64,000 bases of DNA. It comes from Solea solea. Taxonomy: Eukaryota; Chordata; Actinopteri; Pleuronectiformes; Soleidae. The notes under the pieces are model-generated. The model did no database searches. It was given only the letters and a program-made list of their open reading frames with translations, and was not told the origin of the DNA. The stretch spans positions 18,197,284 through 18,261,283 of the forward strand of contig NC_081142.1 of the NCBI RefSeq assembly GCF_958295425.1. Direction: 5' to 3'. Position 1 is the first letter of the stretch. Each line of letters opens with the position of its first letter. Shown one piece after another: positions 30,978-56,840 of the stretch. Both the position numbers and the translations under genes were made by a program.

Positions 30978-31009
30978 TGTCGATGTATATAGTTAGAATT
31001 ATAGCATTT

Positions 31010-32764: not shown

Positions 32765-32996
32765 ATGACACTGCGGAAGCTCCTGGACCACCTGAAGCTG
32801 GTGGCTTCCTACCAGGACGTGAACAAGATGACTTGTCAGAACCTGGCGGTGTGTTTCGGGCCGGTGCTGCTCAGCCAGCGTCAGGAGGCGTCGTGTCACA
32901 CCAACCGAGTCTTCATCGACTCCGAGGAGCTGGCCAGTGCCCTGCACTTCAAGAAGCACATCGAAGTCCTGCATTACCTCCTGCAGCTATGGCCAG
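32765..32996 (+). CDS. syde2: syde2 visible exon 6 (RhoGAP C-terminal half)
   Basis: Acceptor cacaaatcag ends at 32764 and donor gtaatg begins at 32997. It encodes [20 protein letters not shown], then [16 protein letters not shown]. The NLAxxFGPxLL box contains the conserved RhoGAP Asn (residue 729, AAC at 32840-32842) that contacts the GTPase. It ends [16 protein letters not shown] with one base of a split Val codon (phase 1). No disruption is seen. An ATG sits exactly at the exon start, but this is an internal methionine that follows LPEVER of exon 5, not a translation start. Confidence 0.95.
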
Positions 32997-33689: not shown

Positions 33690-34010
33690 CTTCATCCATG
33701 CATCCATTTTCTACCACTTTATCCTCCGTCGCGGGGGGAGCTGGGCCAATGTCAGCTGACATAGGGCGATAGGCGGGGTCCATCACAGAGACACATATAG
33801 AGACAAACAACCATTCACTCTCACTCTCACACCTAGTGTCCAATTTACCTAATCCCCATATGCATGTTTTTGGACAGTGGGAGGAAACCGGAGAACGCGT
33901 AGAAAAGCGACGCACACACGTGGAGAACATGCAAACTCCATGCTGAGAGGCCCTCGTTCCAACCGGTGCTCGAACCCGGGTCTCCTTGCTGTAAAGGCAA
34001 GAGTTGGGTT
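33690..34010 (-). mobile_element. tRNA-derived SINE copy, minus strand
   Basis: Contains TTTATCC..GTCGCGGGGGG, GGGCGATAGGCGGGGT, CAACCATTCACTCTCAC, GTTTTTGGACAGTGGGAGGA, AACATGCAAACTCCATGC and GCTCGAACCCGGGTCTCC. These follow the order of the copy at 44930-45312, in the same orientation. Confidence 0.85.
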
Positions 34011-35417
34011 CCTCGAGTTTTACAAATTTTAGGATTATGATAGTGGTTAAAAGATTCAGGCTCACACTTTTTAAACAGCACACACCTCTCACATCTCCTC
34101 TCTTACATCATTAAGGTGTGTGTGACCTGCAGATTTAACCAGATCTGCTGATGAATGTCTGAGTAGAAAGTGACAGTGTCAGCATTTTTTTTTCCTTGCA
34201 CAGTCAAGTTGAGGTTACAGTTGTACTATAGTCGAGCCGCGCGGTTCAGTTTACTACGTGCACGGTCACTTGTTCTGCAGTCGGTGTCTGCAGAAGTTAC
34301 CAAGAATGTTTGTTGACAAGTTATAGAATTTAGCAGAGGCTGCAGTGCACAGGGCTGGTCCCTGAAGCTGAAATTTAAAGTTTCATATCAGGCCATGTTG
34401 AATCCCTCACGATATCGGCAGATATTGGCCTTAAAATGTATTGTATTGTATTGTATCAGATGTCGTCAAACACACCAAGATCTGACTAATGACTGCAACA
34501 TTAGGCTAAATAGGCAGTTACTTCTGTTTATTTAGTTGGCTCAATGAAGGAAATGTATGTCTACATCTGCTGTGACATGCGTATGTGAATATTATGTTTA
34601 TATTATGTTAATATTAATATTATGTTCATTTCACTACAAAGGAGACCAAACTACAAAACATATACTGTATATATGTATAGATTGATTATTTGGCATATCT
34701 GATATTGACAAAAAGTCCAATATTGTGCATCCCTTCCTCAGGGCTAACTATTAAAACAACCAGTAAAAGACAATGCAGACATTTTGATCACGTCCTGTTT
34801 CCAGCTTGTTTTTATAAGGCCGTCAATGAACGTAAAAATACCCAATTCTTAAATGTGATAAAGCGTAAAATGACCATGTTGTCTTATCATCGTCCTCGAC
34901 TCGAGGTCCGACTTTGAGAACTTTAATTTAGCGCAATTTCAGTCACGTTTTCATGTATTTTTAAAAGTCCAGTTTTAGTTGGACTAACACAGTAATTTGT
35001 TTGTTTGTTTATTCAAATGGCATGTTGACATTCCGACTGTCGGGGCAACTGGGGGAAGAAAGGGTATTTTTACATTTAACAGTCGACCGTTAAATGTGTG
35101 GAGAGTGAAAGTCGAAAGTCGTGGTGTTTTCTTTTATGCAAAGACTCAATCGCGTGTGTCCTGTCTGCACCTGATGTTCCCGGCTCGCGCCTGAACGACC
35201 TGTAATAACCTTGAAAAAACAACAAACCGCTCAGGTCCAGGTTCAACTTTAACTTCATGCCTTTGTTTACTGCCTGTCCTCGTCCCGCGCTCACACAGCG
35301 TGGGACGCCTGGACTATAATTAAATACATTCCAGGCTTAACCTTAGCCCTCAGCCCCTGAAGCTTCACCCTAACATTTCACAATCATTATGGGATATTTT
35401 CAGCCGCCTCTTCACAC

Positions 35418-35448
<31 letters not shown>

Positions 35449-35595
35449 AACCCTCCGAGGCATTGTTACTCACGCTTCAAATGTGCATACCTTCGGGGAA
35501 GTGCAGGTACAACACAAACTAACACTTCTTACAGGAAGTGGGAGAGAGCATGTGTGTTGGGGGGGGGGCTTTAAGTGTGAATTATGTCAGGTCTG

Positions 35596-35795
35596 TCACC
35601 TGTACAACATTTACATGTGTACTTGAGTACATTTTATATCAGAAAATCGTTTTTGTTGATACTCAAGTACAGTAAATGTCATATAATTTAAGACTTTTAC
35701 TCGAGTAATATTGTAAAAGGTGACTTCAACTTCTACTTAAGTTATTTTCTGTTAAGATACCTTTGCTTTTACGCAAGTATCCCTCAAGTAAAGGT
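35596..35795. repeat. CTCAAGTA-type dispersed repeat
   Basis: Repeated GTACTTGAGTAC, ACTCAAGTACAGTAAA, TTTTACTCGAGTAA and ACTTCTACTTAAG phrases. Related in wording to the ends of the elements at 58012 and 59258. Confidence 0.55.
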
Positions 35796-35939
35796 GAGAT
35801 GTGAAAGTGAAGGATATTGTGTGTTTTCTCGTTGAGTTAATGTAATAGTATCCAAGCCAAGGATAAAGCACAGTCCTCGGAACTTAATTGTCGCCTCATT
35901 TTAGTAAATTTTTATGAGTTTTGTTTGTCTTTGTTAGCG

Positions 35940-36203
35940 CGATGAGCAATGAGTCAATCAGAGGAACAGCACATGTTAGATGTTCTGGAGATAAGGTCAG
36001 AGAGGCCAGAATGAGATGGTTTGGTCATGTACAGAGGAGGGATAGTGAGTATATTGGTAGAAGGATGCCGGGGTTGGAACTGCCAGGCAGGAGGTCTAGA
36101 GAAAGACCAAAGAGAAGGTTTATGGATGTAGTGAAAGAGGTGGAGGAGGTTGATTAGCTGTGGCGACCCCTGAAGGGAGCAGCCAAAAGGAAAAGAAGAA
36201 GAA
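35940..36203 (+). mobile_element. 5'-truncated LINE 3' end with 17-bp target-site duplication
   Basis: A 78-codon frame includes VREARMRWFGHVQRRDSEYI and RRSRERPKRRFMDVVKEVE, the C-terminal part of a LINE reverse transcriptase ORF. It is followed by CTGTGGCGACCCCTGAAGGG and an A/G-rich (AAG)n tail. The perfect 17-bp direct repeat GTTTGTCTTTGTTAGCG lies at both sides (35923-35939 and 36204-36220). Clade not resolved. Non-functional fragment. Confidence 0.9.
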
Positions 36204-36939
36204 GTTTGTCTTTGTTAGCGTCTCGTCACCACGTGCACAATCTTCAGCATGAATTAACCCACAGACCCTCAAAAAAACAAAGAAGACATGCACATTAAGT
36301 ATATGTTTTTGTACTGTAACACAATTTGCAGTATTTGTTCTCTTCTCTCAGCCTCCCTTTCCTCGGCTGGCGGGTAATCGTTTAATCCCGTCCTCGGTGA
36401 ATCATGTCTGAATTTTAAATAACACGGTGTCTCTTTGAGGAGGATAATTTGTGTTTGTTCTCGTCGGTAATAGCTCGAGTCTTTAGCGCCTCGGGAGAGA
36501 TACAGAGCTACTGCTACTGCTGCATGTAAATATACTCCATCAACGACCGCAGCTCCTGATGAGTGAGCTGCAGCCGACGCGTCTGATAATCCAACATTCT
36601 ATACATCACACGTGATCGCTGTTAGTTTAAAAAAGGAAAAGTATCAAGGTCCTCCTTGAAATCCCTGGAGACAAAATACCTTCGCTCATGTTTGTAGAGA
36701 AATTGAAAACATCAGGAAAGTAATGAGTTTAAGGTACAGTGCGTACAATTCAATTCTTTAGCCTCCACATGAGGGTCGCGGGGTCGATTTCTTTGTTACT
36801 TAATTCAGTAATCGATTAATAATTGATGGATCGAGTAATTGTTTCAGCTCTAGTAGTTACACGACGGTGGGAGAGAGTGGGAATTTAGTTTGGCCTGTTT
36901 TTGCACATAACAAACAAAAATGTTATTGTAAATACGCTT

Positions 36940-37115
36940 CAAATTGAACTCATTTACAACTGCAGTGTTTTTCTAAATAAATCACATACAACAGTATTTT
37001 AACATGCAGTCAATTGTAAATAACTGCTAGATATTGAAAGTTAGTCTGGAAAAATGGACAAAAGCATTTAGTTACAGGACATTCTCTGACCCTTTTATGG
37101 TTTTTTTTTAAAAAA
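36940..37115. repeat. dispersed repeat shared with 58390-58495
   Basis: ACATGCAGTCAATTGTAAA, GATATTGAAAGTTAGTCTGG, AAAAATGGACAAAAGCA and CCCTTTTATGG occur in the same order and spacing at 58390-58495. Confidence 0.7.
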
Positions 37116-37722
37116 AAAAGCCCAGACATACATTTTGACGGTTAGGTGTTAGAAGGTGTTAAAGTTTACAATTAACCTCTGCATGTGAAACCTGGACAAA
37201 TGCAGCTTTCTGTTGAAAACTCAAATGTTAAATCACATTAAGAGTAAAAACATTAGCAGCACAGTTCAGCCATCAAGGGCAAACACACAAAAAGTCACAG
37301 ATCAGGAAAAATCTTAAATGGACAAATCAGAATATCTTTCATTTAGGTTTAATCTTGTATCTGCTCTCTGTGACTCAAAGCCCTAACCTTTAACACTTCC
37401 TGTTGTTGTTTTTTTGTTCCTTCCCAATCCAGCGAGGGAGTGAGGGAGGGCTAGCGGTGTCAACAAGTGTAGGTACACAGAGACAAAGAGAGACAGGTAA
37501 CCAGACTGTGCTGGTTGTGTTGCAGTGCTGTTTCCGAAGAGAGTTTTGTGTCTGTGGCAGACGTCATAAAAGTAGTGTTCCCATTTCCATTTTTTAATTC
37601 AGTCAAAAGCAGTCAAAGCAGCTGGCACCACAGTCGCAGGTTGTTGTTTGGTTGGTGTGACTTCAGCACGTGTTTGACTCGGAGCGAGGCATGGCATGGC
37701 ATGTTCCCGTTTGGATTGTTTT

Positions 37723-37724
<2 letters not shown>

Positions 37725-37759
<35 letters not shown>
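37725..37759. repeat. (GT)n microsatellite
   Basis: Uninterrupted run of about 17 GT units. Confidence 0.95.
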
Positions 37760-37760
<1 letters not shown>

Positions 37761-39020
37761 CAACGGTAAATCAGGGTTAGTGAGTTTGCTGCGTACTTAG
37801 AGAGGAATGTTAGAAGAAATGTTTATCCTTCTGTAAATGATACGCAGTATTATGTTGTCAAGAAAGGGGCTTATAAGTGCCTCGTTTGTGCTCGCTGGGA
37901 AAACGTGTTGTTGACTGTCCCATGAAAAAGAATTTAATTCAGACAATCCTCACTCCTCCACACTTTTCATTACCTACTTCAAACTGACTGACGTCTAAAA
38001 ATGTGTCCAGGCAATACCTAAAAATATCTGCATGGCTAGACGTTACCATAGTGACAAATTGTGATTCATTTTTTGGGTTAAGTATCTGGGTACTTTGTCA
38101 TTTTGGGAAACATTCACTCCAAATATATCAGTTTCTCCCATTTGTCATTTCTAATTTTTGGGCACAAAATGCTAAATTGTGGCCACGATATACTAATTTG
38201 TGGGTTTAGTATCATTCCCACCAACAGCTGGGTGAGCAAATGGAGCGCACCCTCGCTTGAAACTGTGACAGTAAGTAAAGTTAGAAAGATATTCACAGAT
38301 TTCAAACATGCACGATCAATAACATTTACAAACAACAAAACTTTGTTGAAACACGTGTTATACATATTTTGAATCATAGTGATGTAGACAACAAGCTACA
38401 ACATTGTTTTTCTCAAAAAGAGTCAGAGAAACTACATTAATCTCTACTTAAGGCTAGAGCTCAGGGACCGTCTACAAAGTGCAACACCTGAAAAAAATAA
38501 AATAATAATAATTCAGTAACTACATCGTGATACAGCGTACTGCCATTAAACTCACCTCACATGTTTCCTTTGGATTGTACTACAAAAAAATATTCTTTTA
38601 AATGATTTTTTGGATATTTATTAGTAACAATTGTCAACAACTTCACTTTAATACAGTGTAGTGTCATTAAACATTCTGTAAATGTCACAGTGGTACTGTT
38701 CATGATACTACACCACTCAGTCATATGTTCTTGATTATTTATTAGTACTAAATGTCAATAATTTCATGTTATACCCATTTCGTGGAGTTCCGTACAATCT
38801 CGTCTAATATCCAAGATAAGCTAAATCAATTAAATTCATCATTTTGGCCTAGTAACATGAGAGAGGTTTCAGTGTTCTCATCCAACTCTTGGCAAGACAG
38901 GTCTCCCATTTCCCAAAATGTTGAAGTATTCCTGTAAGGCTTCTAGTTCAAATACCCACTATATTGTAAGTTTTATTAACTCTGTCTGTCTTTTTTGTCT
39001 CTTTCTCTCTGCTCCTGCAG

Positions 39021-39766
39021 TCGTGGACCCACACAGGCCGTCATCAGCTCAGCCTCCTGCAGCCTCAGTGTCACCAGATCAGCTCTCGGCTCCTCCTCTA
39101 CGTCGGAGAAAAGAGCGCCCCCAGGTGCTGAACCTCAGCGAAGCCGAGATAGCCGGTGTTTTGCGACCTAAACCGGGACGCCTGGACAGCCCCAGCAACC
39201 GCTACGCCGGTGACTGGAGCGGCTGCGGCGAGAGCTACTTCCCCTCTGAGATGATGATGCTGCTGCCTCCCAGCAAAGAGGAGGCGGACTATGATGACGT
39301 TCCCTCAGAGGACACGGAGACAGCTGAGGAGGAGGAGCAGCAGCAGCAGCAGCAGCACAAGTCTGAAGATGAGGATGATAAAGCAGAGCAGGAGCAGGTC
39401 ACATCTTCTCCTGCTCTGTGTGATCCCTCCGAGCAGGAGCAACCTCCGAGAGAGGATGCGGTGAACGTAGAGGACGAGAAAGGGAGGGAAGAAGAAGAAG
39501 AGGACAAGCAAGGAGAAAGCGATAGTTCGGGCAACAGCAGCAGGCAGGGATTAGAAGACGAGGAGCAGGAGGAGAGGGTGTGCGACCATATCCTGCTGCC
39601 TCGGCTGCCCAAGGAGCACACGTACCAGGCGTACATGAAGATCCAGGACATCAGCCCAGTGTTGAGCAACAGGGTGAACCTGAGAGACCTGCAGGAGAGC
39701 ATCGACACTCTGATAGGAAACCTGGAAAGGGAGCTCAACAAGAACAAGCTCAACATCGGATATTGA
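39021..39766 (+). CDS. syde2: syde2 last coding exon (acidic/Gln tail, stop)
   Basis: Acceptor ctctctgctcctgcag ends at 39020. The two first bases complete the Val codon of LQLWPV. It gives 247 further residues and the TGA at 39764-39766. Visible parts are a proline-rich start, RRRKERPQVLNLSEAEI, SPSNRYAGDWSGCGESYF (a SYDE C-terminal motif by recollection), and a long acidic stretch DYDDVPSEDTETAEEEE. Then come six Gln codons (CAG)6 near 39338-39355, more Glu/Asp/Gln-rich sequence, and a final amphipathic segment NLRDLQESIDTLIGNLEREL that could form a short coiled coil. The tail is probably disordered and may bind partners; this is inference. Confidence 0.93.
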
Positions 39767-42617
39767 CTACTACTACTACACACTCACACACAGACTAACA
39801 CACACACACACACACACACACACTCGTACAGTCACAGTGTTTCCATGGAGATCCTGTGAGGTCACCGTGGCTGCGTGACCTGCCGTTGCTGCTCTTAAGA
39901 ACCTAAAGGATGAGATGAGAGGAAATGTAAACAGGGCACCTCTGGTCTGTTTGTACCCATAGACATTCCTAATGTTTTGTTTTCCTTTTTATTTTGTCAA
40001 CTCTCCGACTTCATGTCGTTGTAGGTCTGTCACAGTCCACAGTTCTGTGTTCCGTGTTGTTGTTGTTGTTGTTGTTATTGTTGCTTCTCTTCTTATTAGA
40101 AGAACCCATTGACCCTCATTGAGGGGTTTAAAAAGGTGCCTTAATTGTGCGAAGGTGGTACGCCCGAGATGAAAATCCACCCTGGATATAAACGCATCCC
40201 CTCCTCTATTACAGTATAACCTCTCAGATTAGTGAAGACTTAGAAAAAAAAGTATATTATTCTTTTAGCAGGTACGACTTGTGAGTGAGTAATAAGTGAT
40301 ACTGATGGCAGCACTTGTAAATGTAATACAAATTGTATTTAAATCTTCTCATTTTCAAACCAAAACATCCTTATTCAGGAGTTTCCCCACCTTCTTGGCA
40401 GAATCTGACAGAGCAGACACAGGAAAAATCTGGGAATCATTAGGCGTCTTGATTAAGAATTGGTTCCCAGTGAAAGTATGTGATTAAATAATTGAATTAA
40501 TGAAAAAAAGAAATGTGTTGGTCAAGGCAGCGTCTTTATTATTATGATTGGAAATAGAGGAGAACTGCTCTGATGTTTTTTGGACGCGATGGATTTGTTT
40601 CAAGATTCTGGTTTTATCCACTCTGTGGCTCGTGCTCGTGCTATTTATTAAATATTAAATTAAAATACTCGAGGGATTTCAAATCGCTTTTCCCAGAAAA
40701 CCTTGAGCAGACTGAAAAAACAGTGTGGTTGAAACTGCAGCGTCAGAAGCTCAAAAAAATAGATGTTTACAAGCATGTTTGAGGTTTTTATTTTATTTTT
40801 TAACCCTTTTCTTTTAACCTCCCTCCTAGAACTGTTTTCTAAAGTAATGCCTTCTGGTGAGTAAAGTCATCAGTGTTGTTCGCTTAGTGCAAACAATTGT
40901 CTTGAGTAGGAACTTGTGTGTTTGTCCTGTTTCAGGGTGGATTTCTTTTCTTTTTTCTGTGTTAAGGCAGCAGAGAGCTGCATTTTCTGTCGAGGTATGA
41001 AACACTCAATGTTGTACAACAATAATGCACTTATGAGGTATGTGTGGTAGTACAGGCTGTCATTGTTGAACATGCATTTAAAAAAATAATAATATTGTGG
41101 CTGTGGACTGAATTTCAAACAGCTGCCACTGAAATGATCCAATCTGGGTTGAACTTTGTGCATATTTGTCAATGTCAATGTTAAGACTCCATAACTACAC
41201 TCACCTGTCAGACCTGATATGATCTCTCAATGTACAGTCAAGATTTATTCATTATATCAGTGAAACATATTCATTTTAAGCTCTACAAGAATAGTTCAAC
41301 ATCGTTTGTTTCTCCCCCTTTTTTGCTGAGACTCGGATGAAAAGCTCAATATCACTCTCATGTCTCCACAGTGGACAGTAATACAAGCCGATGCTGCAAT
41401 GAGACAATAACTGTGCTCGAACTGATTCGAGAAGATTGGTGTTGGTATGTCATTTTTTTTTTTGTCTCTTTTGGCTGCCGTCCCAAGATGGCTCATAAAA
41501 AGTAACAGTTTATTTATTCCAGGGCTATGAAAAAGCACATGATTTGTATTTTAAAGTGTAATATTTGAGTAGTATAATTAACATCTTGCATCTTTGGTTT
41601 GATATCACAAGTTTTACTTAAATAAAGTGATTATTTTTTATTTCCGACACAGAAATAATGTCGTCTGGATAATAGACACAGGATAAGGTGTTAGTTGTTG
41701 CCTTAAGTCAATTTGAAATAACTTTATTTCCTAAGTATCACCGCTACGTTCCTTGTGGCATGTGGACATGACATCATTTATATAGAAATAAAATGATTGA
41801 ATAAAACCTGTAGGTTTATCAAGTCCAAAGAAGAAAATTGAATTCTTGAAGCCTCACATGTTAAAGTGTGTTTGTGTAATTCAAAATATTACAGGCTGAT
41901 CTACTCACATCGGACTGTTATTGAACCTCTCATTTAATTCTTGGCAAGAAAATAAACTATTAAATAAAAGTATCAAACTCTTCCCTCTTTGAAATCCCTG
42001 CTTCCCTCAAACCGTGAAACAAAAACAAAACCGAGTTACAGAACCTCTTAAAAAAACGACAAAGGATGTCTTCATCAATCCAGGGATTCAGAACGATCAG
42101 TATTTAACCTTTTATGTATATGTATAAAATTATATAATTGTATTTGGAGTGTATTATTTTTTACACATTCTGTTTTCCCGACGGTGTATATTTAAATACT
42201 TCTGATGACCTTGTCATGTTGATCTGTAGCAATAGTTCGCTTTCCTTTCCCCCTTCAAGCTACCTGTACACATCTTAATGTGCTGGACTAATGGTACAAC
42301 TTAAGCTGTATAATATGTGATGAAATCGTGCTCTGTGCAGATAAAAAAAAAAGTGATATTGTTATTTTTGTTATATTGTGTATACGTGTATATTTGACAT
42401 TGTTTAGCGTTGCTGGTGGACTAAGCTATGTTTATGTATGTTTGTTTATGTTTTTTTGAAAGGTACTGAACGTCGCATGGTCAAAAGCTTTACCGGTATA
42501 AATGAGGCTCTTTCTCATCTGCCTTTGTATTTCATATTTATGTGTAAAAAGACTATTTTGTAATGTATGCTCATGTGTCACCCTGTTTCCTCCAATAAAC
42601 AGATAACTGCATTGTGC
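39767..42617 (+). other. syde2: syde2 3' UTR (predicted)
   Basis: This AT-rich stretch follows the stop codon with no supported ORF. It contains a (CA)n tract at 39799-39823, a (TTG)n tract around 40058-40083, and several AATAAA hexamers (41621, 41787, 41800, 41951, 41963, 42594). The last one, in CCTCCAATAAACAG, comes before the satellite and is taken as the distal poly(A) signal. A shorter UTR ending near 41.65 or 41.82 kb is equally possible from sequence alone. Confidence 0.6.
42594..42599 (+). terminator. putative distal poly(A) signal AATAAA
   Basis: Canonical AATAAA preceded by a T-rich stretch and followed within 25 bases by a GT/T-containing segment (TTGTGCAAGCTTTTCTCC). It is the last such hexamer before the satellite array. 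Upstream alternatives exist at 41621 and 41800. Confidence 0.5.
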
Positions 42618-43013
42618 AAGCTTTTCTCCAGAGGACTTACCATGCTCAGTGACTCACTTTGGTGCAGCTGTACGCAAGAGTATGAGGGGCACATGTAAAA
42701 AACAAAAAATTTAAAGAAAATGTGACAAAAAAAGTAAGATAAAACGTTCCAAAAAGTCATAGAATAGTAAGGTGTCCAAAATGTGACAATAGTGAGTTTA
42801 GTTAGGTGTCCGAAATCACTCAAAAAGGTCATAGTATAGTATGTCGTCCAAAATTAGACAAAAAAGTCATGGTATAGTTTGTCATCCAAAATCACTCAAA
42901 AAAGTCATAGTTTAGTATGTCGTCCAAAATCACTCAAAAACGTCATAGTATAGCATGTTGTCCAAAATCACTCAAAAAAGTCATAGTCATGTCTAATTTT
43001 TTGTCAAAATTTG

Positions 43014-44231
43014 ACAAAAAAGTCATAGTATAGCATGTCATCCAAAATTGAACAAAAAGTCTTAGTATATTATGTGGTCCAAAATCACACCAAAAAAGTC
43101 ATGGTATAGTATGTGGTCCAAAATCATCCAAAAAAAGTCATAGTATAGTATGTGGTCCAAAATCATCCAAAAAAGTCATAGTATAGTATGTCATCCAAAA
43201 TTAGACAAAAAAGTCATAGTATAGTATGTGGTCCAAAATCACCCAAAAAAGTCATAGTATAGTATATGGTCCAAAATCACCCAAAAAAGTCATAGTATAG
43301 TATGTCTTCCAAAATCATCCAAAAAAGTCATAGTATAGTATGTGGTCCAAAATCACCCAAAAAAGTCATAGTATAGTATATGGTCCAAAATCACCCAAAA
43401 AAGTCACAGTATAGTATGTGGTCCAAAATCATCCAAAAAATTCATAGTATAGTATGTGGTCCAAAATCACCCATAAACGTCATAGTATAGTATGTGGTCC
43501 AAAATAACCCAAAAAAGTCATAGTATAGTATGTGGTCCAAAATAACCCAAAAACGTCATAGTATAGTATGTGGTCCAAAATCATCCAAAAACGTCATAGT
43601 ATAGTATGTCATCCAAAATTAGACAAAAAAGTCATAGTATAGCATGTCGTGCAAAATTGAACAAAAAGTCTTAGTATATTATGTGGTCCAAAATCACACC
43701 AAAAAAGTCATGGTATAGTATGTGGTCCAAAATCATCCAAAAAAAGTCATAGTATAGTATGTGGTCCAAAATCATCCAAAAAAGTCATAGTATAGTATGT
43801 CATCCAAAATTAGACAAAAAAGTCATAGTATAGTATGTGGTCCAAAATCACCCAAAAAAGTCATAGTATAGTATATGGTCCAAAATCACCCAAAAAAGTC
43901 ATAGTATAGTATGTCTTCCAAAATCATCCAAAAAAGTCATAGTATAGTATGTGGTCCAAAATCACCCAAAAAAGTCATAGTATAGTATATGGTCCAAAAT
44001 CACCCAAAAAAGTCACAGTATAGTATGTGGTCCAAAATCATCCAAAAAATTCATAGTATAGTATGTGGTCCAAAATCACCCATAAACGTCATAGTATAGT
44101 ATGTGGTCCAAAATAACCCAAAAAAGTCATAGTATAGTATGTGGTCCAAAATAACCCAAAAACGTCATAGTATAGTATGTGGTCCAAAATCATCCAAAAA
44201 CGTCATAGTATAGTATGTCATCCAAAATTAG
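43014..44231. repeat. 609-bp higher-order repeat, two tandem copies
   Basis: Rare variants recur exactly 609 bp apart: AAAAAGTCTTAG at 43059/43668, CACACCAAAAAAGTCATGG at 43098/43707, and CCATAAACG at 43471/44080. Since 609 is 16 monomers plus one base, this is a tandem duplication of a 16-monomer block. A diverged third relative lies near 46490-47040. Confidence 0.9.
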
Positions 44232-44929
44232 ACAAAAAAGTCATAGTATAGCATGTCGTGCAAAATTGAACAAAAAAGTCATAGTATAGTATGTCGTCCA
44301 AAATCACCGAAAAACTTCATAGTATAGTATGTGGTCCAAAATCACCCAAAAAAGTCATAGTATATGGTCCAAAATCACCCAAAAAAGTCATAGTATAGAT
44401 GTCTTCCAAAATCATCCAAATAGTCATAGTATAGTATGTGGTCCAAAATCACCCAAAAAAGTCATAGTATAGTAAGTGGTCCGAAATCACCCAAAAACTT
44501 CATAGTATAGTATGTTGTCCAAAATCATCCAAAAACGTCATAGTATAGTATGTGGTCCAAAATCATCCAAAAACGTCATAGTATAGTATGTCATCCAAAA
44601 TTAGACAAAAAAGTCATAGTATAGCATGTCTTGCAAAATTGAACAAAAAAGTCATAGGATAGTATGTGGTCCAAAATCACCCAAAAACGTCATAGTATAG
44701 TATGTGGTCCAAAATCACCCAAAAAAGTCATAGGATAGTATGTGGTCCAAAATCACCCAAAAAAGTCATAGTATAGTATGTCTTCCAAAATCATCCAAAA
44801 AAGTCATAGTATAGTATGTGGTCCAAAATCATCCAAAAAATTCATAGTATAGTATGTGGTCCAATATCACCCAAAAAAGTCATAGTATAGTATGTGGTCC
44901 AAAATAACCCAAAAACGTCATAGTATAGT

Positions 44930-45312
44930 CAGTCAGTCAGTCATCATCTACCGCTTTATCCTCTGCCAGAGGGTCGCGGGGGGTGCTGTGCCAATCTCAG
45001 CTACATCGGGCGATAGGCGGGGTACACCCTGGACAGTTCGCCAGTCCATCGCAGGGCCACACACAGATAGAGACAAACAACCATTCACTCTCACACTCAC
45101 TCCTATGGTCAATTTGGAGTGTCCAATTTACCTATCCCCACATTGCATGTTTTTGGACTGTGGGAGGAAGCCGGAGAACCCGGAGAGAACCCACGCACAC
45201 ACGGGGAGAACATGCAAACTCCATGCAGAAAGGCCCTTGTTCCAACCGGGGCTCGAACCCGGGTCTTCTCGCTGCAAGGCGAGAGTGCTAACCACTACAC
45301 CACCGTGTGGCC
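44930..45312 (-). mobile_element. tRNA-derived SINE inserted in the satellite
   Basis: On the minus strand it begins with a tRNA-like head (GGTGTAGTGGTTAGCACTC near 45290-45310 as box A region, GGGTTCGAGCCC as box B near 45250). This is followed by a body with GAGTTTGCATGTTCTCC and CTCCCACAGTCC. It is flanked by a 14-bp direct repeat CGTCATAGTATAGT (44916-44929 and 45313-45326), and the satellite resumes in phase. Related copies occur at 26875, 33690 and 62205. This is a common teleost SINE type; the family name was not assigned. Confidence 0.88.
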
Positions 45313-48300
45313 CGTCATAGTATAGTATGTTGTCCAAATTCATCCAAAAACGTCATAGTATAGTATGTCATCCAAAATTAGACAAAAAAGTCATAGTATA
45401 GCATGTCGTGCAAAATTGGACAAAAAAGTCATAGTATAGCATGTGGTCCGAAATAACCCAAAAACGTCATAGTATAGTATGTGGTCCAAAATCATCCAAA
45501 AACGTCATAGTATAGTATGTCATCCAAAATTAGACAAAAAAGTCATAGTATAGCATGTTGTGCAAAATTGAACAAAAAAGTCATAGTATAGTATGTCGTC
45601 CAAAATTAGACAAAAAAGTCATAGTATAGCATGTCGTGCAAAATTGAACAAAAAAGTCATAGTATAGTATGTCGTCCAAAATCACCGAAAAACTTCATAG
45701 TATAGTATGTGGTCCAAAATCACCCAAAAAAGTCATAGTATATGGTCCAAAATCACCCAAAAAAGTCATAGTATAGATGTCTTCCAAAATCATCCAAAAA
45801 AGTCATAGTATAGTAAGTGGTCCGAAATCACCCAAAAACTTCATAGTATAGTATGTTGTCCAAAATCATCCAAAAACGTCATAGTATAGTGTGTGGTCCA
45901 AAATCATCCAAAAACGTCATAGTATAGTATGTCATCCAAAATTAGACAAAAAAGTCATAGTATAGCATGTCTTGCAAAATTGAACAAAAAAGTCATAGGA
46001 TAGTATGTGGTCCAAAATCACCAAAAAACGTCATAGTATAGTATGTGGTCCAAAATCACCCAAAAAAGTCATAGGATAGTATGTGGTCCAAAATCACCCA
46101 AAAAAGTCATAGTATAGTATGTCTTCCAAAATCATCCAAAAAAGTCATAGTATAGTATGTGGTCCAAAATCATCCAAAAAATTCATAGTATAGTATGTGG
46201 TCCAATATCACCCAAAAAAGTCATAGTATAGTATGTGGTCCAAAATAACCCAAAAACGTCATAGTATAGTATGTTGTCCAAAATCATCCAAAAACGTCAT
46301 AGTAATTATGTCATCCAAAATTAGACAAAAAAGTCATAGTATAGCATGTCTTGCAAAATTGAACAAAAAAGTCATAGTATAGTATGTCTTCCTTAATCAC
46401 CCAAAAAAGTTATAGTACAGTATGTGTTCCACAATCACCCAAAAACGTCATAGTATAGTATGTGGTCCAAAATCATCCAAAAACGTCGTGGTATAGTATG
46501 TGGTCCAAAATCATCCAAAAAAAGTCATAGTATAGTATGTGGTCCAAAATCATCCAAAAAAGTCATAGTATAGTATGTCATCCAAAATTAGACAAAAAAG
46601 TCATAGTATAGTATGTGGTCCAAAATCACCCAAAAAAGTCATAGTACAGAATATGGTCCAAAATCACCCAAAAAAGTCATAGTATAGTATGTCTTCCAAA
46701 ATCATCCAAAAAAGTCATAGTATAGTATGTGGTCCAAAATCACCCAAAAAAGTCATAGTATAGTATATGGTCCAAAATCACCCAAAAAAGTCACAGTATA
46801 GTATGTGGTCCAAAATCATCCAAAAAATTCATAGTATAGTATGTGGTCCAAAATCACCCATAAACGTCATAGCAGAGTATGTGGTCCAAAATAACCCAAA
46901 AAAGTCATAGTATAGTATGTGGTCCAAAATAACCCAAAAACGTCATAGTATAGTATGTGGTCCAAAATCATCCAAAAACATCATAGTATAGTATGTCATC
47001 CAAAATTAGACAAAAAAGTCATAGTATAGCATGTCGTGCAAAATTGAACAAAAAAGTCATAGTATAGTATGTCGTCCAAAATCACCGAAAAACTTCATAG
47101 TATAGTATGTGGTCCAAAATCACCCAAAAAAGTCATAGTATATGGTCCAAAATCACCCAAAAAAGTCATAGTATAGATGTCTTCCAAAATCATCCAAAAA
47201 AGTCATAGTATAGTATGTGGTCCAAAATCACCCAAAAAAGTCATAGTATAGTAAGTGGTCCGAAATCACCCAAAAACTTCATAGTATAGTATGTTGTCCA
47301 AAATCATCCAAAAACGTCATAGTATAGTATGTGGTCCAAAATCATCCAAAAACGTCATAGTATAGTATGTCATCCAAAATTAGACAAAAAAGTCATAGTA
47401 TAGCATGTCTTGCAAAATTGAACAAAAAAGTCATAGGATAGTATGTGGTCCAAAATCACCCAAAAACGTCATAGTATAGTATGTGGTCCAAAATCACCCA
47501 AAAAAGTCATAGTATAGTATGTCTTCCAAAATAATCCAAAAAAGTCATAGTATAGTATGTGGTCCAAAATCATCCAAAAAATTCATAGTATAGTATGTGG
47601 TCCAATATCACCCAAAAAAGTCATAGTATAGTATGTGGTGGTCCAAAATAACCCAAAAACGTTATAGTATAGTATGTTGTCCAAAATCATCCAAAAACGT
47701 CATAGTATAGTATGTCATCCAAAATTAGACAAAAAAGTCATAGTATAGCATGTCGTGCAAAATTGAACAAAAAAGTCATAGTATAGTATGTGGTCCGAAA
47801 TAACCCAAAAACGTCATAGTATAGTATGTGGTCCAAAATCATCCAAAAACGTCATAGTATAGTGTGTCATCCAAAATTAGACAAAAAAGTCATAGTATAG
47901 CATGTTGTGCAAAATTGAACAAAAAAGTCATAGGATAGTATGTGGTCCAAAATCACCCAAAAACATCATAGTATAGTATGTGGTCCAAAATCACCCAAAA
48001 AAGTCATAGGATAGTATGTGGTCCAAAATCACCCAAAAAAGTCATAGTATAGTATGTCTTTCAAAAACATCCAAAAAAGTCATAGTATAGTATGTGGTCC
48101 AAAATCATCCAAAAAATTCATAGTATAGTATGTGGTCCAATATCACCCAAAAAAGTCATAGTATAGTATGTGGTCCAAAATAACCCAAAAACGTCATAGT
48201 ATAGTATGTTGTCCAAAATCATCCAAAAACGTCATAGTATAGTATGTCATCCAAAATTAGACAAAAAAGTCATAGTATAGCATGTCGTGCAAAATTGAAC

Positions 48301-48879
48301 AAAAAAGTCATAGTATAGTATGTGGTCCGAAATAACCCAAAAACGTCATAGTATAGTATGTGGTCCAAAATCATCCAAAAACGTCATAGTATAGTATGTC
48401 ATCCAAAATTAGACAAAAAAGTCATAGTATAGCATGTTGTGCAAAATTGAACAAAAAAGTCATAGTATAGTTTGTCGTCCAAAATTAGACAAAAAAGTCA
48501 TAGTATAGCATGTCGTGCAAAATTGAACAAAAAAGTCATAGTATAGTATGTCGTCCAAAATCACCGAAAAACTTCATAGTATAGTATGTGGTCCAAAATC
48601 ACCCAAAAAAGTCATAGTATATGGTCCAAAATCACCCAAAAAAGTCATAGTATAGATGTCTTCCAAAATCATCCAAAAAAGTCATAGTATAGTAAGTGGT
48701 CCGAAATCACCCAAAAACTTCATAGTATAGTATGTTGTCCAAAATCATCCAAAAACGTCATAGTATAGTTCGGGTCCAAAATCATCCAAAAACGTCATAG
48801 TATAGTATGTCATCCAAAATTAGACAAAAAAGTCATAGTATAGCATGTCTTGCAAAATTGAACAAAAAAGTCATAGGAT

Positions 48880-51800
48880 AGTATGTGGTCCAAAATCACC
48901 CAAAAAAGTCATAGTATAGTATGTCTTCCAAAATCATCCAAAAAAGTCATAGTATAGTATGTGGTCCAAAATCATCCAAAAAATTCATAGTATAGTATGT
49001 GGTCCAATATCACCCAAAAAAGTCATAGTATAGTATGTGGTCCAAAATAACCCAAAAACGTCATAGTATAGTATGTTGTCCAAAATCATCCAAAAACGTC
49101 ATAGTATAGTATGTCATCCAAAATTAGACAAAAAAGTCATAGTATAGCATGTCGTGCAAAATTGAACAAAAAAGTCATAGTATAGTATGTGGTCCGAAAT
49201 AACCCAAAAATGTCATAGTATAGTATGTGGTCCAAAATCATCCAAAAACGTCATAGTATAGTATGTCATCCAAAATTAGACAAAAAAGTCATAGTATAGC
49301 ATGTTGTGCAAAATTGAACAAAAAAGTCATAGTATAGTATGTCGTCCAAAATTAGACAAAAAAGTCATAGTATAGCATGTCGTGCAAAATTGAACAAAAA
49401 AGTCATAGTATAGTATGTCGTCCAAAATCACCGAAAAACTTCATTGTATAGTATGTGGTCCAAAATCACCCAGAAAAGTCATAGTATAGTATGTCATCCA
49501 AAATTAGACAAAAAAGTCATAGTATAGCATGTCGTGCAAAATTGAACAAAAAAGTCATAGTATAGTATGTTGTCCAAAATCATCCAAAAACGTCATAGTA
49601 TAGTATGTGGTCCAAAATCATCCAAAAACGTCATAGTAATTATGTCATCCAAAATTAGACAAAAAAGTTATAGTATAGCATGTCTTGCAAAATTGAACAA
49701 AAAAGTCATAGTATAGTATGTCTTCCAAAATCACCCAAAAAAGTTATAGTACAGTATGTGTTCCACAATCACCCAAAAACGTCATAGTATAGTATGTGGT
49801 CCAAAATCATCCAAAAACGTCGTGGTATAGTATGTGGTCCAAAATCACCTAAAAAAGTCATAGTATGGTATGTTGTCCAAAATAACCCAAAAAAGTCATA
49901 GTATAGTATGTGGTCCAAAATCACCCAAAAAAGTCATAGTATAGTATGTGGTCCAAAATCACCTAAAAGTCATAGTATAGTATGTCGCCCAAAATCATCC
50001 AAAAAAGTCATAGTATAGTATGTGGTCCAAAATCACCCAAAAAAGTCATAGTATAGTAGGTTGTCCAAAATCATCCAAAAAAGTCATAGTATAGTATGTG
50101 GTCCAAAATCATCCAAAAACGTCATAGTAAGTATGTCATCCAAAATTAGACAAAAAAGTCATAGTATAGCATGTCTTGCAAAATTGAACAAAAAAGTCAT
50201 AGGATAGTATGTCGTCCAAAATCACCCAAAAACGTCATAGTATAGTATGTCGTCCAAAATCACCCAAAAAAGTTATAGTATAGTATGTGGTCCAAAATCA
50301 CCCAAAAACGTCATAGTATAGTATGTTGTCCAAAATCATCCAAAAACGTCATAGTATAGTTCGGGTCCAAAATCATCCAAAAACGTCATAGTATAGTATG
50401 TCATCCAAAATTAGACAAAAAAGTCATAGTATAGCATGTCTTGCAAAATTGAACAAAAAAGTCATAGGATAGTATGTGGTCCAAAATCACCCAAAAACGT
50501 CAGAGTATAGTATGTGGTCCAAAATCACCCAAAAAAGTCATAGGATAGTATGTGGTCCAAAATCACCCAAAAAAGTCATAGTATAGTATGTCTTCCAAAA
50601 TCATCCAAAAAAGTCATAGTATAGTATGTGGTCCAAAATCATCCAAAAAATTCATAGTATAGTATGTGGTCCAATATCACCCAAAAAAGTCATAGTATAG
50701 TATGTGGTCCAAAATAACCCAAAAACGTCATAGTATAGTATGTTGTCCAAAATCATCCAAAAACGTCATAGTATAGTATGTCATCCAAAATTAGACAAAA
50801 AAGTCATAGTATAGCATGTCGTGCAAAATTGAACAAAAAAGTCATAGTATAGTATGTGGTCCGAAATAACCCAAAAATGTCATAGTATAGTATGTGGTCC
50901 AAAATCATCCAAAAACGTCATAGTATAGTATGTCATCCAAAATTAGACAAAAAAGTCATAGTATAGCATGTTGTGCAAAATTGAACAAAAAAGTCATAGT
51001 ATAGTATGTCGTCCAAAATTAGACAAAAAAGTCATAGTATAGCATGTCGTGCAAAATTGAACAAAAAAGTCATAGTATAGTATGTCGTCCAAAATCACCG
51101 AAAAACTTCATTGTATAGTATGTGGTCCAAAATCACCCAGAAAAGTCATAGTATAGTATGTCATCCAAAATTAGACAAAAAAGTCATAGTATAGCATGTC
51201 GTGCAAAATTGAACAAAAAAGTCATAGTATAGTATGTTGTCCAAAATCATCCAAAAACGTCATAGTATAGTATGTGGTCCAAAATCATCCAAAAACGTCA
51301 TAGTAATTATGTCATCCAAAATTAGACAAAAAAGTTATAGTATAGCATGTCTTGCAAAATTGAACAAAAAAGTCATAGTATAGTATGTCTTCCAAAATCA
51401 CCCAAAAAAGTTATAGTACAGTATGTGTTCCACAATCACCCAAAAACGTCATAGTATAGTATGTGGTCCAAAATCATCCAAAAACGTCGTGGTATAGTAT
51501 GTGGTCCAAAATCACCTAAAAAAGTCATAGTATGGTATGTTGTCCAAAATAACCCAAAAAAGTCATAGTATAGTATGTGGTCCAAAATCACCCAAAAAAG
51601 TCATAGTATAGTATGTGGTCCAAAATCACCTAAAAGTCATAGTATAGTATGTCGCCCAAAATCATCCAAAAAAGTCATAGTATAGTATGTGGTCCAAAAT
51701 CACCCAAAAAAGTCATAGTATAGTAGGTTGTCCAAAATCATCCAAAAAAGTCATAGTATAGTATGTGGTCCAAAATCATCCAAAAACGTCATAGTAAGTA

Positions 51801-51997
51801 TGTCATCCAAAATTAGACAAAAAAGTCATAGTATAGCATGTCTTGCAAAATTGAACAAAAAAGTCATAGGATAGTTTGTCGTCCAAAATCACCCAAAAAC
51901 GTCATAGTATAGTATGTCGTCCAAAATCACCCAAAAAAGTTATAGTATAGTATGTGGTCCAAAATCACCCAAAAACGTCATAGTATAGTATGTGGTC
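48880..51997. repeat. 1667-bp higher-order repeat, two near-identical tandem copies
   Basis: Rare markers recur 1667 bp apart: AAAAATGTCATAG (49211/50878), CTTCATTGTATAG (49441/51108), GTCGCCC (49984/51651) and AGGATAG before TTGCAAAATTG context (50201/51868). Further left, TTCGGG markers are 1591 bp apart (48769/50360), because the second copy gained two extra monomers. Differences between the copies are few, which points to a recent duplication. Confidence 0.88.
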
Positions 51998-53332
51998 CAA
52001 AATAACCCAAAAACGTCATAGTATAGTATGTTGTCCAAAATCATCCAAAAACGTCATAGTATAGTATGTCATCCAAAATTAGACAAAAAAGTCATAGTAT
52101 AGCATGTCGTGCAAAATTGAACAAAAAAGTCACAGTAAAGTATGTCGTCCAAAATCACCCAAAAACGTCATAGTATAGTATGTGGTCCAAAATCACCCAA
52201 AAAAGTCATAGTATAGTATATGGTCCAAAATCACCCAAAAAAGTCATAGTATAGTATGTCTTCCAAAATCATCCAAAAAAGTCATAGTATAGTATGTGGT
52301 CCAAAATCACCCAAAAAAGTCATAGTATAGTATATGGTCCAAAATCACCCAAAAAAGTCATAGTATAGTATGTCTTCCAAAATCATCCAAAAAAGTCATA
52401 GTATAGTATGTGGTCCAAAATAACCCAAAAAAGTCATAGTATAGTATGTGGTCCAAAATCATCCAAAAACGTCATAGTATAGTATGTTGCCAAAAATCAC
52501 TCAAAAAAAGTCATAGTATAGCATGTCGTGCAAAATTGAACAAAAAAGTCATAGTATAGTATGTCATCCAAAATCACCCAAAAACGTCATAGTATAGTAT
52601 GTGGTCCAAAATCACCCAAAAAAGTCATAGTATAGTATGTGGTCCAAAATCACCTAAAAAAGTCATAGCATAGTATGTCTTCCAAAATCATCCAAAAAAG
52701 TCATAGTATAGTATGTTGTCCAAAATCATCCAAAAACGTCATAGTATAGTATGTCATCCAAAATTAAACAAAAAAGTCATAGTATAGTATGTGGTCCAAA
52801 ATCACCCAAAAACGTCATAGTATAGTATGTGGTCCAAAATCACCCAAAAAAGTCATAGTATAGTATGTCCTCCAAAATCATCCAAAAAAGTCATAGTATA
52901 GTATGTGGTCCAAAATCACCCAAAAAAGTCATAGTATAGTATGTGGTCCAAAATCACCCAAAAAAGTCATAGTATAGTATGTCGCCCAAAATCATCCAAA
53001 AAAGTCATAGTATAGTATGTGGTCAAAAATCACCCAAAAACGTCATAGTATAGTATGTCATCCAAAATCACCCAAAAAAGTCATTGTATAGTATGTGGTC
53101 CAAAATCACCCAAAAACGTCATAGTATAGTATGTCGTCCAAAATCATCCAAAAAAGTCATAGTATAGTATGTTGTCCAAAATCATCCAAAAAAGTCATAG
53201 TATAGTATGTGGTCCAACATCACCCAAAAAAGTCACAGTATAGTATGTGATCCAAACTCACCCAAAAAAGTCATAGTATAGTTTGTGCTCCAAAATGACC
53301 CAAAAAAGGCATGTATGTCGTCCAAAACGTCA

Positions 53333-53475
53333 TAGAACACACCAAATCATTATTAACAGCTTCAGCTCCAAGTGGGGCTTGATCCCTGGTGTTTTGATTC
53401 AAAGTCAGGAGTGTTAACCGCCACACTAACCATTAACTGCAATTCCATTGTTAGCCAAAAGTATTATAGTTTAGT
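53333..53475 (-). mobile_element. captured tRNA-like (SINE head?) segment in array, copy 1
   Basis: About 140 bp of non-satellite DNA within the array. The minus strand reads GTTAGTGTGGCGGTTAACAC, then ACTCCTGACTTTGAATC, then GGGATCAAGCCCC. That resembles box A and box B of a tRNA-derived SINE head. It is shared with a second copy 722 bp downstream (19 monomers), so it was amplified with the satellite. The tRNA relation is inference. Confidence 0.6.
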
Positions 53476-54054
53476 ATGTGGTCCAAAATCACCCAAAAAA
53501 GTCATAGTATAGTATGTGGTCCAAAATAACCCAAAAACGTCATAGTATAGTATATTGTCCAAAATCACCCAAAAAAGTCATAGTATAGATGTCTTCCAAA
53601 ATCATCCAAAAAAGTCATAGTATAGTATGTGGTCCAAAATAACCCAAAAACGTCATAGTATAGTATGTTGTCCAAAATCATCCAAAAATGTCATAGTATA
53701 GTATGTCATCCAAAATTAGACAAAAAAGTCATAGTATAGCATGTCGTGCAAAATTGAACAAAAAAGTCATAGTATAGTATGTCGTCCAAAATCACCCAAA
53801 AACGTCATAGTATAGTATGTGGTCCAAAATCACCCAAAAAAGTCATAGTATAGTATGTGGTCCAAAATCACCCAAAAAAGTCATAGTATAGTATGTCTTC
53901 CAAAATCACCCAAAAAAGTCATAGTATAGTATGTGGTCCAAAATCATCCAAAAAGTCATAGTATAGTATGTTGTCCAAAATCACCCAAAAAAGTCATAGT
54001 ATAGTTTGTGCTCCAAAATGACCCAAAAAAGGCATGTATGTCGTCCAAAATGTC

Positions 54055-54197
54055 ATAGAACACACCAAATCATTATTAACAGCTTCAGCTTCAAGTGGGG
54101 CTTGATCCCTGGTGTTTTGATTCAAAGTCAGGAGTGTTAACCGCCACACTAACCATTAATCGCAACTCCATTGTTAGCCAAAAGTATTATAGTTTAG
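54055..54197 (-). mobile_element. captured tRNA-like segment in array, copy 2
   Basis: Near-identical to the segment at 53333-53475 (for example ACCAAATCAT at 53341 and 54063, 722 bp apart), with a few substitutions such as AGCTTCAAG versus AGCTCCAAG. It lies in the same satellite context on both sides. Confidence 0.6.
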
Positions 54198-56840
54198 TAT
54201 GTGGTCAAAAATCACCCAAAAAAGTCATAGTATAGTATGTGGTCCAAAATCATCCAAAAAATTCATAGTATAGTATGCGGTCCAAAATCACCCATAAACG
54301 TCATAGTATAGTATGTTGCCAAAAATCACTCAAAAAAGTCATAGTATAGCATGTCGTCCAAAATCAGTCAAAAAAGTCATAGGATAGTATGTGGTCCAAA
54401 ATCACCCAAAAAAGTCATAGTATAGTATGTGGTCCAAAATCACCCAAAAAAGTCACAGTATAGTATGTGGTCCAAAATCATCAAAAAAAGTCAAGGTATA
54501 GTATGTGGTCCAAAATCACCCATAAACGTCATAGTATAGCATGTCGTTCCAAAATCACTCAAAAAAGTCATAGTATAGTATGTCATCCATATTCACTCAA
54601 AAAAGTCATAGGATAGTATGTCGTCCAAAATCATCCAAAAAAGTCATAGTATAGTATGTGTTCCAAAATCACCCAAAAAAGTCATAGTATAGTATGTCGT
54701 CCAAAATCATCCAAAAAAGTCATAGTATAGTATGTTGTCCGAAATCACCCAAAAAAGTCATAGTATAGTATGCGGTCCAAAATCATCCAAAAAAGTCATA
54801 GTATAGTATGTGGTCCAAAATCACCCAAAAAAGTCATAGTATAGTATGTCGCCCAAAATCATCCAAAAAAGTCATAGTATAGTATGTGGTCCAAACTCAC
54901 CCAAAAAAAGTCATAGTATAGTATGTGGTCCAAAATCATCCAAAAAAGTCATAGTATAGTATGTGGTCCAAAATCATCCAAAAAAGTCATAGTATAGTAT
55001 GTTGTCCGAAATCACCCAAAAAAGTCATAGTATAGTATGCGGTCCAAAATCATCCAAAAAAGTCATAGTATAGTATGTGGTCCAAAATCACCCAAAAAAG
55101 TCATAGTATAGTATGTGGTCCAAACTCACCCAAAAAAAGTCATAGTATAGTATGTCGCCCAAAATCATCCAAAAAAGTCATAGTATAGTATGTGGTCCAA
55201 ACTCACCCAAAAAAAGTCATAGTATAGTATGTGGTCCAAAATCATCCAAAAAAGTCATAGTATAGTATGTCGCCCAAAATCATCCAAAAAAGTCATAGTA
55301 TAGTATGTCGTCCAAACTCACCCAAAAAAAGTCATAGTATAGTATGTCGTCCAAAATGAGACAGAAAAGTCATAGTTTAGTATGTCGTCCAAAATCAGTC
55401 AAAAAGTCATAGTATAGCATGTCATCCAAAATGAGACAAAAGTCATAGTATATTATGTCTGACAAAATCACTCAAAAAAGTCACAGTATAGTATGACGTC
55501 CAAAATCACTCAAAAAGGTCATAGTATAGTATGTCGTTCAAAATAAGACAGAAAAGTCATAGTATAGTATGTCTAACAAAATTAGACAAAAAAGTCATAG
55601 TATAGTATGTCGTCCAAAATCAGTCAAAAAGTCATAGTATAGTATGTCGTCCAAAATCACTCAAAGAAGTCATAGTATAGTATGTCTTCCAAAATCATGA
55701 AAAAAAGTCATAGTATAGTATGTCTAACAAAATTAGACAAAAAAGTCATAGTATAGTATGTCTAACAAAATTAGACAAAAAAGTCATAGTATAGTATGTC
55801 GTCCAAAATCACTCAAAGAAGTCATAGTATAGTATGTCTTCCAAAATCATTAAAAAAAGTCATAGTATAGTATGTGGTCCAAAATTAGACAAAAAAAGTA
55901 TATAGTATGTCATCCAAAATGAGTAAAAAATTAATCAAAAAAGTCATAGTATAGTATTTTTACAAAAATCATTCAAAAAAGTCATAGTATATTCATATAT
56001 ATATATAGTCATATATAGTATAGCATATTGTCTATAGCATAGAAGAAAGTCATAGTATAGTATGTCGTCCAAAATGAGACAAAAAGTCATAGTTAGTATA
56101 TTGTCCAAAAACAGTCAAAAAAGTCATAGTATAGTATGTCGTCCAAAATCAGAGTTTTGTATGCTCCTAAACTGTTTCACTCTGACAAAGCTATAAACCT
56201 AGTAAAACTTAACCTCTTCCTTTCCCCCAATTCATTTTCCTGCTTCTGTTTCATACTTATTTCATGGTGCAAGTTTGTGATAGTGCTGCTCCATGGTGAT
56301 AGTGTATGTGCCTGCTGCTGACACAACAGAGAGTGTTTGGTGAAATTGATTTCAGCAGGGTTTCCTGTCGCACCATCTGTCTGTCTAGACAACACAAAAA
56401 CAAACAAGGGCCTCATTTCAATAAGTCAGAGTGGAGAGTGGAGCATTTGCTGCATCATTTTACCTTATTTAAATAAATGGATAAATGGAAATAATGGATC
56501 TTTTCCAAAGGGATTGAGATGTAGCAAAGGATACATCTAAAAATTAAAGTTCATTGTTTTGTCCTCAATAATACATAAAAAAAAAAGGTTGAAACAGTTC
56601 TAACTGCAGCATAAAGTCTGTTTTAGTCAGAACATTCCTTTTAAATCAGCTGCTCAGTGTTGAGCCACAACATCACTTTGTGTAGAGAAACTGTTACGAC
56701 GTTTAATATGAGAGCAACATACATTTTCATTATCGGTCAGTTCATCTGGCTCATGTTCTGTGATGATAAATAAATAAATAAATAAACCAATATGAAACAC
56801 CTGCATTTATTTTTCATGTTACATCAGTCGGTCGTGTCCG

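What the first reader, a model, noticed from the sequence alone, without database searches (positions are those of the whole stretch)
42720..56152. Large 38-bp satellite with an old-edge, young-core layout directly behind syde2
About 13.4 kb of one 38-bp monomer sits in otherwise single-copy, gene-bearing DNA. Monomers at both edges share an apparent ancestral wording (GTCCAAAATCACTC) and are degenerate. The interior is uniform, with derived CACCC, CATCC, TTAGAC and TTGAAC classes. This gradient is what expansion from the middle by unequal exchange predicts. I do not recognise the monomer as a named fish satellite.
Basis: partly seen in the sequence, partly recalled or inferred. Interest (0 to 1): 0.75.

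Follow-up and report, generated by a model that had tools for sequence, protein, structure and literature searches.

The report
Fish satellite array grown by blocks
A 13-kb run of a 38-letter DNA repeat lies just behind a fish gene; it resembles a satellite repeat already described in Asian seabass and appears to have grown by copying blocks of many repeats, so it is mostly ordinary.

Summary
The array is real: 42808-56151, 38-bp unit, about 351 copies, one orientation, directly 3' of syde2. Its edges are set apart: the CACTC wording occurs 8 times in the edge zones (27 usable monomers) and 4 times in the interior (305), edge monomers group on a tree, and left and right edges are mixed within it. 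(1) The monomer is not without a named relative: it resembles Lca_38, a FISH-mapped pericentromeric tandem repeat of Asian seabass (30 of 38 identical; 0 of 500 shuffles as good). (2) The interior is not uniform: monomers there differ on average at 4.93 of 38 positions and lie in multi-monomer blocks. (3) There is no symmetric centre-out gradient: young DNA fills about 43-52 kb, almost to the left edge, where a 609-bp block is duplicated with 607 of 609 identities; the right 4 kb is older. The Lca_38 oligo does not show the edges to be ancestral. Best mechanism: repeated tandem duplication of blocks by unequal exchange, with old rims escaping turnover. Genome-wide copy number, species and read support could not be tested.

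The parts
42808..56151 (+). 38-bp satellite array, about 351 copies by TRF, head to tail in one orientation
   Evidence: TRF; wrap-around alignment with 354 segments, inserts included; the only minus-strand self-match is one 25-bp palindrome
42702..42807 (+). degenerate outermost repeat remnants on the left
   Evidence: TRF weak row 42702-42755; alignment from 42751
42808..43076 (+). left rim: 7 divergent monomers, 4 of them CACTC type
   Evidence: the last one (43040) is also the first monomer of the 16-monomer block
43040..43648 (+). 16-monomer block, first copy (609 bp)
   Evidence: 607 of 609 identical to 43649-44257
43649..44257 (+). 16-monomer block, second copy, directly adjacent
44930..45312 (-). 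tRNA-derived SINE-like insertion, flanked by the 13-14 bp repeat (C)GTCATAGTATAGT
   Evidence: Rfam tRNA match 45246-45302 minus, 32.8 bits, cut-off 29; related copies at 33710-34004, 26897-27137 and 62205-62535; flanking repeat; uninterrupted paralogous sites at 99.2%
48737..50327 (+). 44-monomer block, first copy (1591 bp; 76 bp, i.e. two monomers, shorter than its partner)
   Evidence: 1589 of 1591 aligned bases identical to 50328-51994
50328..51994 (+). 44-monomer block, second copy, directly adjacent (1667 bp)
51995..55348 (+). older right part of the interior
   Evidence: best-block divergence 4.7-7.4% per bin at 52.3-55.3 kb against 0-3.3% at 43.3-52.3 kb; no block of the strict search right of 51956
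53340..53460 (.). non-satellite insert B, first copy (borders set by eye; SINE-like by eye only, not tested)
   Evidence: the surrounding 201 bp are 196 of 201 identical to the second copy
54063..54183 (.). non-satellite insert B, second copy, 723 bp further on
55349..56151 (+). right rim: 20 usable divergent monomers (CACTC, CAGTC, GAGAC and AACAAAATTAGAC types among others)
   Evidence: best-block divergence 12-14%
14941..39766 (+). syde2 coding pieces found here (C2 exon, two RhoGAP pieces, C-terminal exon ending at 39766); introns and missing exons not worked out
   Evidence: Pfam C2_SYDE and RhoGAP, 2 of the 4 frames given; protein search with the C2 exon; frames 31602-31769 and 38861-39763 match Kryptolebias SYDE2
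42594..42599 (+). possible poly(A) signal AATAAA of syde2
   Evidence: read; no transcript evidence

Best explanation
This is a local array of a satellite family related to Lca_38, already described as a pericentromeric tandem repeat in Asian seabass. It sits in the DNA just behind syde2 of a teleost. Shown: the array contains duplicated blocks, and the two clearest recent events are directly adjacent duplications of 16 monomers and of 44 monomers. Inferred: these arose by out-of-register exchange between sister or homologous arrays. Blocks in 43-52 kb turn over quickly, while monomers at the two rims have few neighbours to pair with and keep older, diverged sequence. Inserts landed at different times; insert B was later carried along in a copying event, the SINE-like element at 44930 was not. 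Nothing found here points to a coding role; a regulatory role was not tested.
For: Lca_38 oligonucleotide in PMC4833346 (passages; section 9): 30 of 38 identical with the consensus, 33 of 39 aligned columns with the edge form, 0 of 500 shuffles as good for either. Adjacent duplications of 609 bp (607 of 609) and 1591/1667 bp (2 mismatches plus 76 gapped bases); outside the 44-monomer pair identity drops to 86.2% and 95.7%. Monomer offset 44 is the best period in 45.3-53.3 kb (4.18 against a mean of 5.23 differences) and 16 in 43.0-44.9 kb (2.35 against 4.40). Edge and interior labels need 10 changes on the monomer tree; 200 shuffles average 22.6, minimum 17; 98 circular shifts, minimum 15. Left (before 52 kb) and right interior labels need 36 changes against a shuffle minimum of 39. 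No open frame of 90 aa or more inside the array except two across the SINE-like insert and one across the left end.
Against: Kinship with Lca_38 rests on one 38-nt oligonucleotide; interior monomers differ from it in 8.7 columns on average, 6 at best. Slippage, gene conversion or replication-based copying would also leave adjacent blocks. The pair at 53.3/54.0 kb is not a clean 723-bp tandem duplication: beyond the 201-bp core, identity falls to 89.7%. Near-identical 1.6-kb blocks could be an assembly duplication, untested. The step-like layout is a description: within the interior, block divergence still falls with distance to the nearer edge (rho -0.39), about as strongly as it rises with plain position (rho 0.40), and no shift control was run on that subset.
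Confidence: 0.8

Rival explanations
1. Centre-out expansion: the array grew from its middle and pushed older monomers symmetrically to both edges.
For: Both rims are divergent, share the CACTC form and are mixed with each other on the tree (6 changes, shuffle mean 6.2, 114 of 200 shuffles as low). Nearest-neighbour and block divergence fall with distance to the edge (rho -0.32; -0.49).
Against: Circular shifts of the same series do as well in 31 of 332 and 45 of 325 cases. Best-block divergence is low from about 43.3 kb, next to the left rim, and is 4.7-7.4% already at 52.3-55.3 kb. A 607-of-609 duplication starts 232 bp from the left end of the TRF array. Mean monomer distance shows no relation with distance to the edge (rho 0.04).
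Confidence: 0.15
2. Assembly artefact: false tandem duplication of two haplotypes, or a mis-sized array, makes the near-identical 1.6-kb and 0.6-kb blocks.
For: The two copies of the 44-monomer block differ by 2 bases and 76 gapped bases, as two alleles might.
Against: Eleven other block pairs at 98.3-99.8% identity lie at other offsets, so real block duplication is likely in any case. The window holds no N, though this does not exclude an artefact.
Confidence: 0.15
3. The array is an outlying part of a pericentromere, so that syde2 lies at the pericentromere border rather than in an ordinary chromosome arm.
For: The Lca_38 signal is pericentromeric in Lates calcarifer.
Against: Outside the array the window holds a gene and shows GC of 0.358-0.477, and a BLAST of the monomer found only short word matches elsewhere in it (E 0.065 or worse). 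The position of the window on its chromosome is not known.
Confidence: 0.15

Closest known systems
Lca_38 tandem repeat of Lates calcarifer (PMC4833346, passages and section 9 read)
   Same: 38-bp unit, shared 16-bp word GTCATAGTATAGTATG, A-tract in the same place, tandem organisation; 30 of 38 identical
   Different: About 20% different in sequence from the consensus; here one array beside a gene; pericentromeric position not testable
Higher-order-repeat satellite arrays such as human alpha satellite (PMC2853522, abstract read)
   Same: Diverged monomers in multi-monomer blocks duplicated with high identity; that abstract names accumulated crossovers that homogenise and expand arrays
   Different: Unrelated short sequence, no fixed block length (16 and 44 monomers), no centromere evidence
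Minisatellite arrays with divergent end copies (recalled, from no call)
   Same: Short unit, rims older than the body
   Different: Block structure of 16 and 44 monomers; how usual this length is was not checked

Membership tests
Lca_38 satellite family | 38-bp repeat unit | tested here: met
   TRF period 38; oligonucleotide of 38 letters named Lca_38
Lca_38 satellite family | Sequence similarity beyond chance | tested here: met
   30 of 38 identical; 0 of 500 letter shuffles reached the score. Only the oligonucleotide was available, not the supplement consensus
Lca_38 satellite family | Tandem head-to-tail organisation | tested here: met
Lca_38 satellite family | Pericentromeric FISH location | not testable with these tools
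   No chromosome position; the genome search unanswered
Lca_38 satellite family | Many copies across the genome | not testable with these tools
   Same six unanswered calls
Higher-order-repeat array | Multi-monomer blocks more alike than their monomers | tested here: met
   Block copies 99.7-99.9% identical over aligned bases, against interior monomers differing at 4.93 of 38 positions
Higher-order-repeat array | One block length repeated many times | tested here: not met
   16- and 44-monomer duplications, each seen as one adjacent pair, plus block pairs at mixed offsets
Centre-out expanded array | Divergence rises with distance from the middle on both sides | tested here: not met
   Asymmetric profile; correlations with edge distance exist but are reached by 31 of 332 and 45 of 325 circular shifts

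The most novel reading that the evidence does not exclude
A satellite family that is pericentromeric in Asian seabass also seeds and actively expands beside a gene in a chromosome arm of a fish, so this array, with its 16- and 44-monomer duplications and its inserted elements as time marks, could be a young seed of a larger heterochromatic block.
Probability: 0.2. Interest if true: 0.4.

Novelty: new member of a known kind. Interest (0 to 1): 0.25.

Why it matters
It ties an anonymous array to a repeat described in a published fish genome, and gives a worked case in which old rims are real but the simple centre-out model does not describe the layout. If the blocks are polymorphic, the array could serve as a marker near syde2.

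Tried and rejected
Symmetric centre-out gradient: rejected as a description. Edge form as ancestral by outgroup: the edge wording fits Lca_38 a little better as a consensus (33 of 39 against 30 of 38), but per monomer there is no difference (mean differing columns: left 9.67, n 6; right 8.50, n 18; interior 8.70, n 303; Mann-Whitney p 0.54), so I do not claim it. Left and right edges as each other's closest kin on average: not so (mean difference 7.47 left-right, 6.77 left-interior, 6.91 right-interior). Coding array: rejected, no long frames beyond those named. tRNA gene: ARAGORN found none (bacterial code); the Rfam tRNA match lies inside the SINE-like insert. The C2 exon had no match among solved structures. 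Copies in other collections: the 20-base core had 0 exact matches in viral contigs and 0 in genome contigs; these are viral and prokaryote collections, so this says little.

Literature: of the sequence-word searches, one search found one paper (PMC4833346), 15 papers held at least one term, but only PMC4833346 held a sequence word, the other 14 only the letters lca38, PMC4833346 and a mouse paper (PMC6033878, one 12-letter word, seen in the listing only, taken as chance). A search for 38 bp with tandem repeat, teleost and satellite gave 0 papers, and 38-bp, satellite DNA, fish gave one plant paper. Searches for Lca_38 with pericentromeric and satellite, for seabass repeats and for array edges were read as listings, apart from PMC4833346 (passages and section 9), PMC2853522 (abstract) and PMC4110674 (passages, 12 of 29 places shown; '38 bp' has 0 occurrences in its main text). 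The edge zones were drawn after seeing the alignment, so tests of edge against interior are partly circular; 22 of 354 segments (inserts and very divergent copies) were dropped before the monomer statistics. One search stopped with an error after printing the block profile; its later part was run again.

Full report
The observation. TRF reports one array of period 38 at 42808-56151 with 351.3 copies, 83% matches and 2% indels. A wrap-around alignment to the consensus extends it to 42751 and cuts it into 354 segments, of which 332 are usable monomers; 22, occupied by inserts or too divergent, were dropped. All copies point one way; a minus-strand self-search gave only one 25-bp palindrome. GC drops to 0.319-0.370. 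There are no N. Chance is not an issue at this size.

The neighbourhood. Eight frames were given to Pfam; two matched, with C2_SYDE (3.8e-60) and part of RhoGAP (1e-11), both upstream of the array; the four frames taken from beyond the array did not match. The C2 exon matches named fish SYDE2 proteins (Nibea 83%, Liparis 85%, Goodea 86%, Kryptolebias 87%, Paralichthys 90%); proteins named SYDE1 reach at most 50% among the 120 of 205 hits listed. The frame 38861-39763 matches the end of Kryptolebias SYDE2 (160 of 238 columns) up to its last residue, and also Ctenopharyngodon SYDE2 (63 of 116); a further RhoGAP piece matches 44 of 51. So the coding end of syde2 is at 39766, and an AATAAA stands at 42594-42599, about 0.2 kb before the array. 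'Directly behind syde2' holds, without transcript evidence.

Inserts. A 0.38-kb element at 44930-45312 has a tRNA-like part on the minus strand (Rfam, 32.8 bits against a cut-off of 29), relatives at three other places in the window (77-86%), and a 13-14 bp flanking repeat; the flanking repeat is itself array sequence, so it is weaker proof of a target-site duplication than usual. With the insert and one flank repeat left out, the site matches uninterrupted places in the array at 99.2% over 130 bp, at 48136, 49003 and 50670, so it probably landed after those blocks had been copied. A second insert exists twice, 723 bp apart, 196 of 201 bp alike with its surroundings, so it probably landed before a copying event; beyond those 201 bp the two places are only 89.7% alike.

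Layout. I compared monomers and 8-monomer blocks along the array. Best-block divergence, in 500-bp bins of block centres, is 4.4% in the first bin, 0-3.3% from 43.3 to 52.3 kb, 4.7-7.4% at 52.3-55.3 kb and 12-14% beyond. The strict block search covers 205 of 354 segments and nothing right of 51956. The left rim is only 7 usable monomers, the right rim 20. This looks like one step at the left and two at the right, rather than a gradient from the middle. Correlations with distance to the nearer edge exist (rho -0.32 for nearest neighbour, -0.49 for blocks), but circular shifts of the same series do as well in 31 of 332 and 45 of 325 cases. Inside the interior alone, block divergence goes with edge distance (rho -0.39) and with plain position (rho 0.40) about equally, without a shift control. 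Mean pairwise difference has no relation with the edge (rho 0.04), and inside the interior it goes the other way (rho 0.23). On the tree, interior monomers left and right of 52 kb are also set apart (36 changes; shuffles 39 or more).

What supports old rims. GTCCAAAATCACTC occurs five times, all in the rims; TCACTCAA occurs 8 times in the rims and 4 times in the interior, and all four interior cases lie right of 52.4 kb. On a FastTree tree of the 332 monomers, rim and interior labels need 10 changes; 200 shuffles gave 17 or more and 98 circular shifts 15 or more. Left and right rims are mixed (6 changes, shuffle mean 6.2). The zones were drawn after seeing the alignment, so this is partly circular. 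On average the two rims are not closer to each other than to the interior.

Growth mechanism. The interior is a mosaic of CACCC, CATCC, TTAGAC, TTGAAC and AACCC classes, in blocks. Two duplications are clean and adjacent: 43040-43648 with 43649-44257 (607 of 609), and 48737-50327 with 50328-51994 (2 mismatches in 1591 aligned bases, one copy 76 bp shorter, which is two monomers). Eleven further block pairs at 98.3-99.8% lie at other offsets. Adjacent copies in whole-monomer steps are what unequal exchange leaves; slippage or conversion cannot be excluded. The abstract of PMC2853522 describes crossovers that homogenise and expand human alpha satellite arrays.

Identity of the family. A word search found GTCATAGTATAGTATG in one paper of the library, PMC4833346. 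Passages and section 9 give the oligonucleotide Lca_38 and its pericentromeric FISH position in Asian seabass. Against it the consensus has 30 of 38 identities and the edge form 33 of 39, with 0 of 500 shuffles as good for either. I take them as related; the window's species is unknown and no claim is made that it is Lates. Distance to the oligonucleotide does not separate rim from interior monomers, so polarity stays open.

Verdict. A real array with real rims, but a relative of a known repeat, grown most likely by ordinary block duplication. The most useful correction is that the young part reaches from near the left edge to the centre, and the old part lies mostly at the right.

Noticed in passing
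59598-59940: A second tandem array (17/38-bp unit with ATTCACCTGTCC) of different sequence lies 3.4 kb beyond the satellite.
   Followed up: no
56947-57070: A short array of 26-bp units (AAAAAGTCAGAATTCTGAGATTAAAG); the BLAST of the satellite monomer matched it by a 14-bp word only.
   Followed up: partly
33710-34004, 26897-27137, 62205-62535: Relatives (77-86% identity) of the SINE-like element that interrupts the satellite.
   Followed up: partly
42997-43021: A 25-bp palindrome (96%) in the left rim, the only minus-strand self-match of the array.
   Followed up: no
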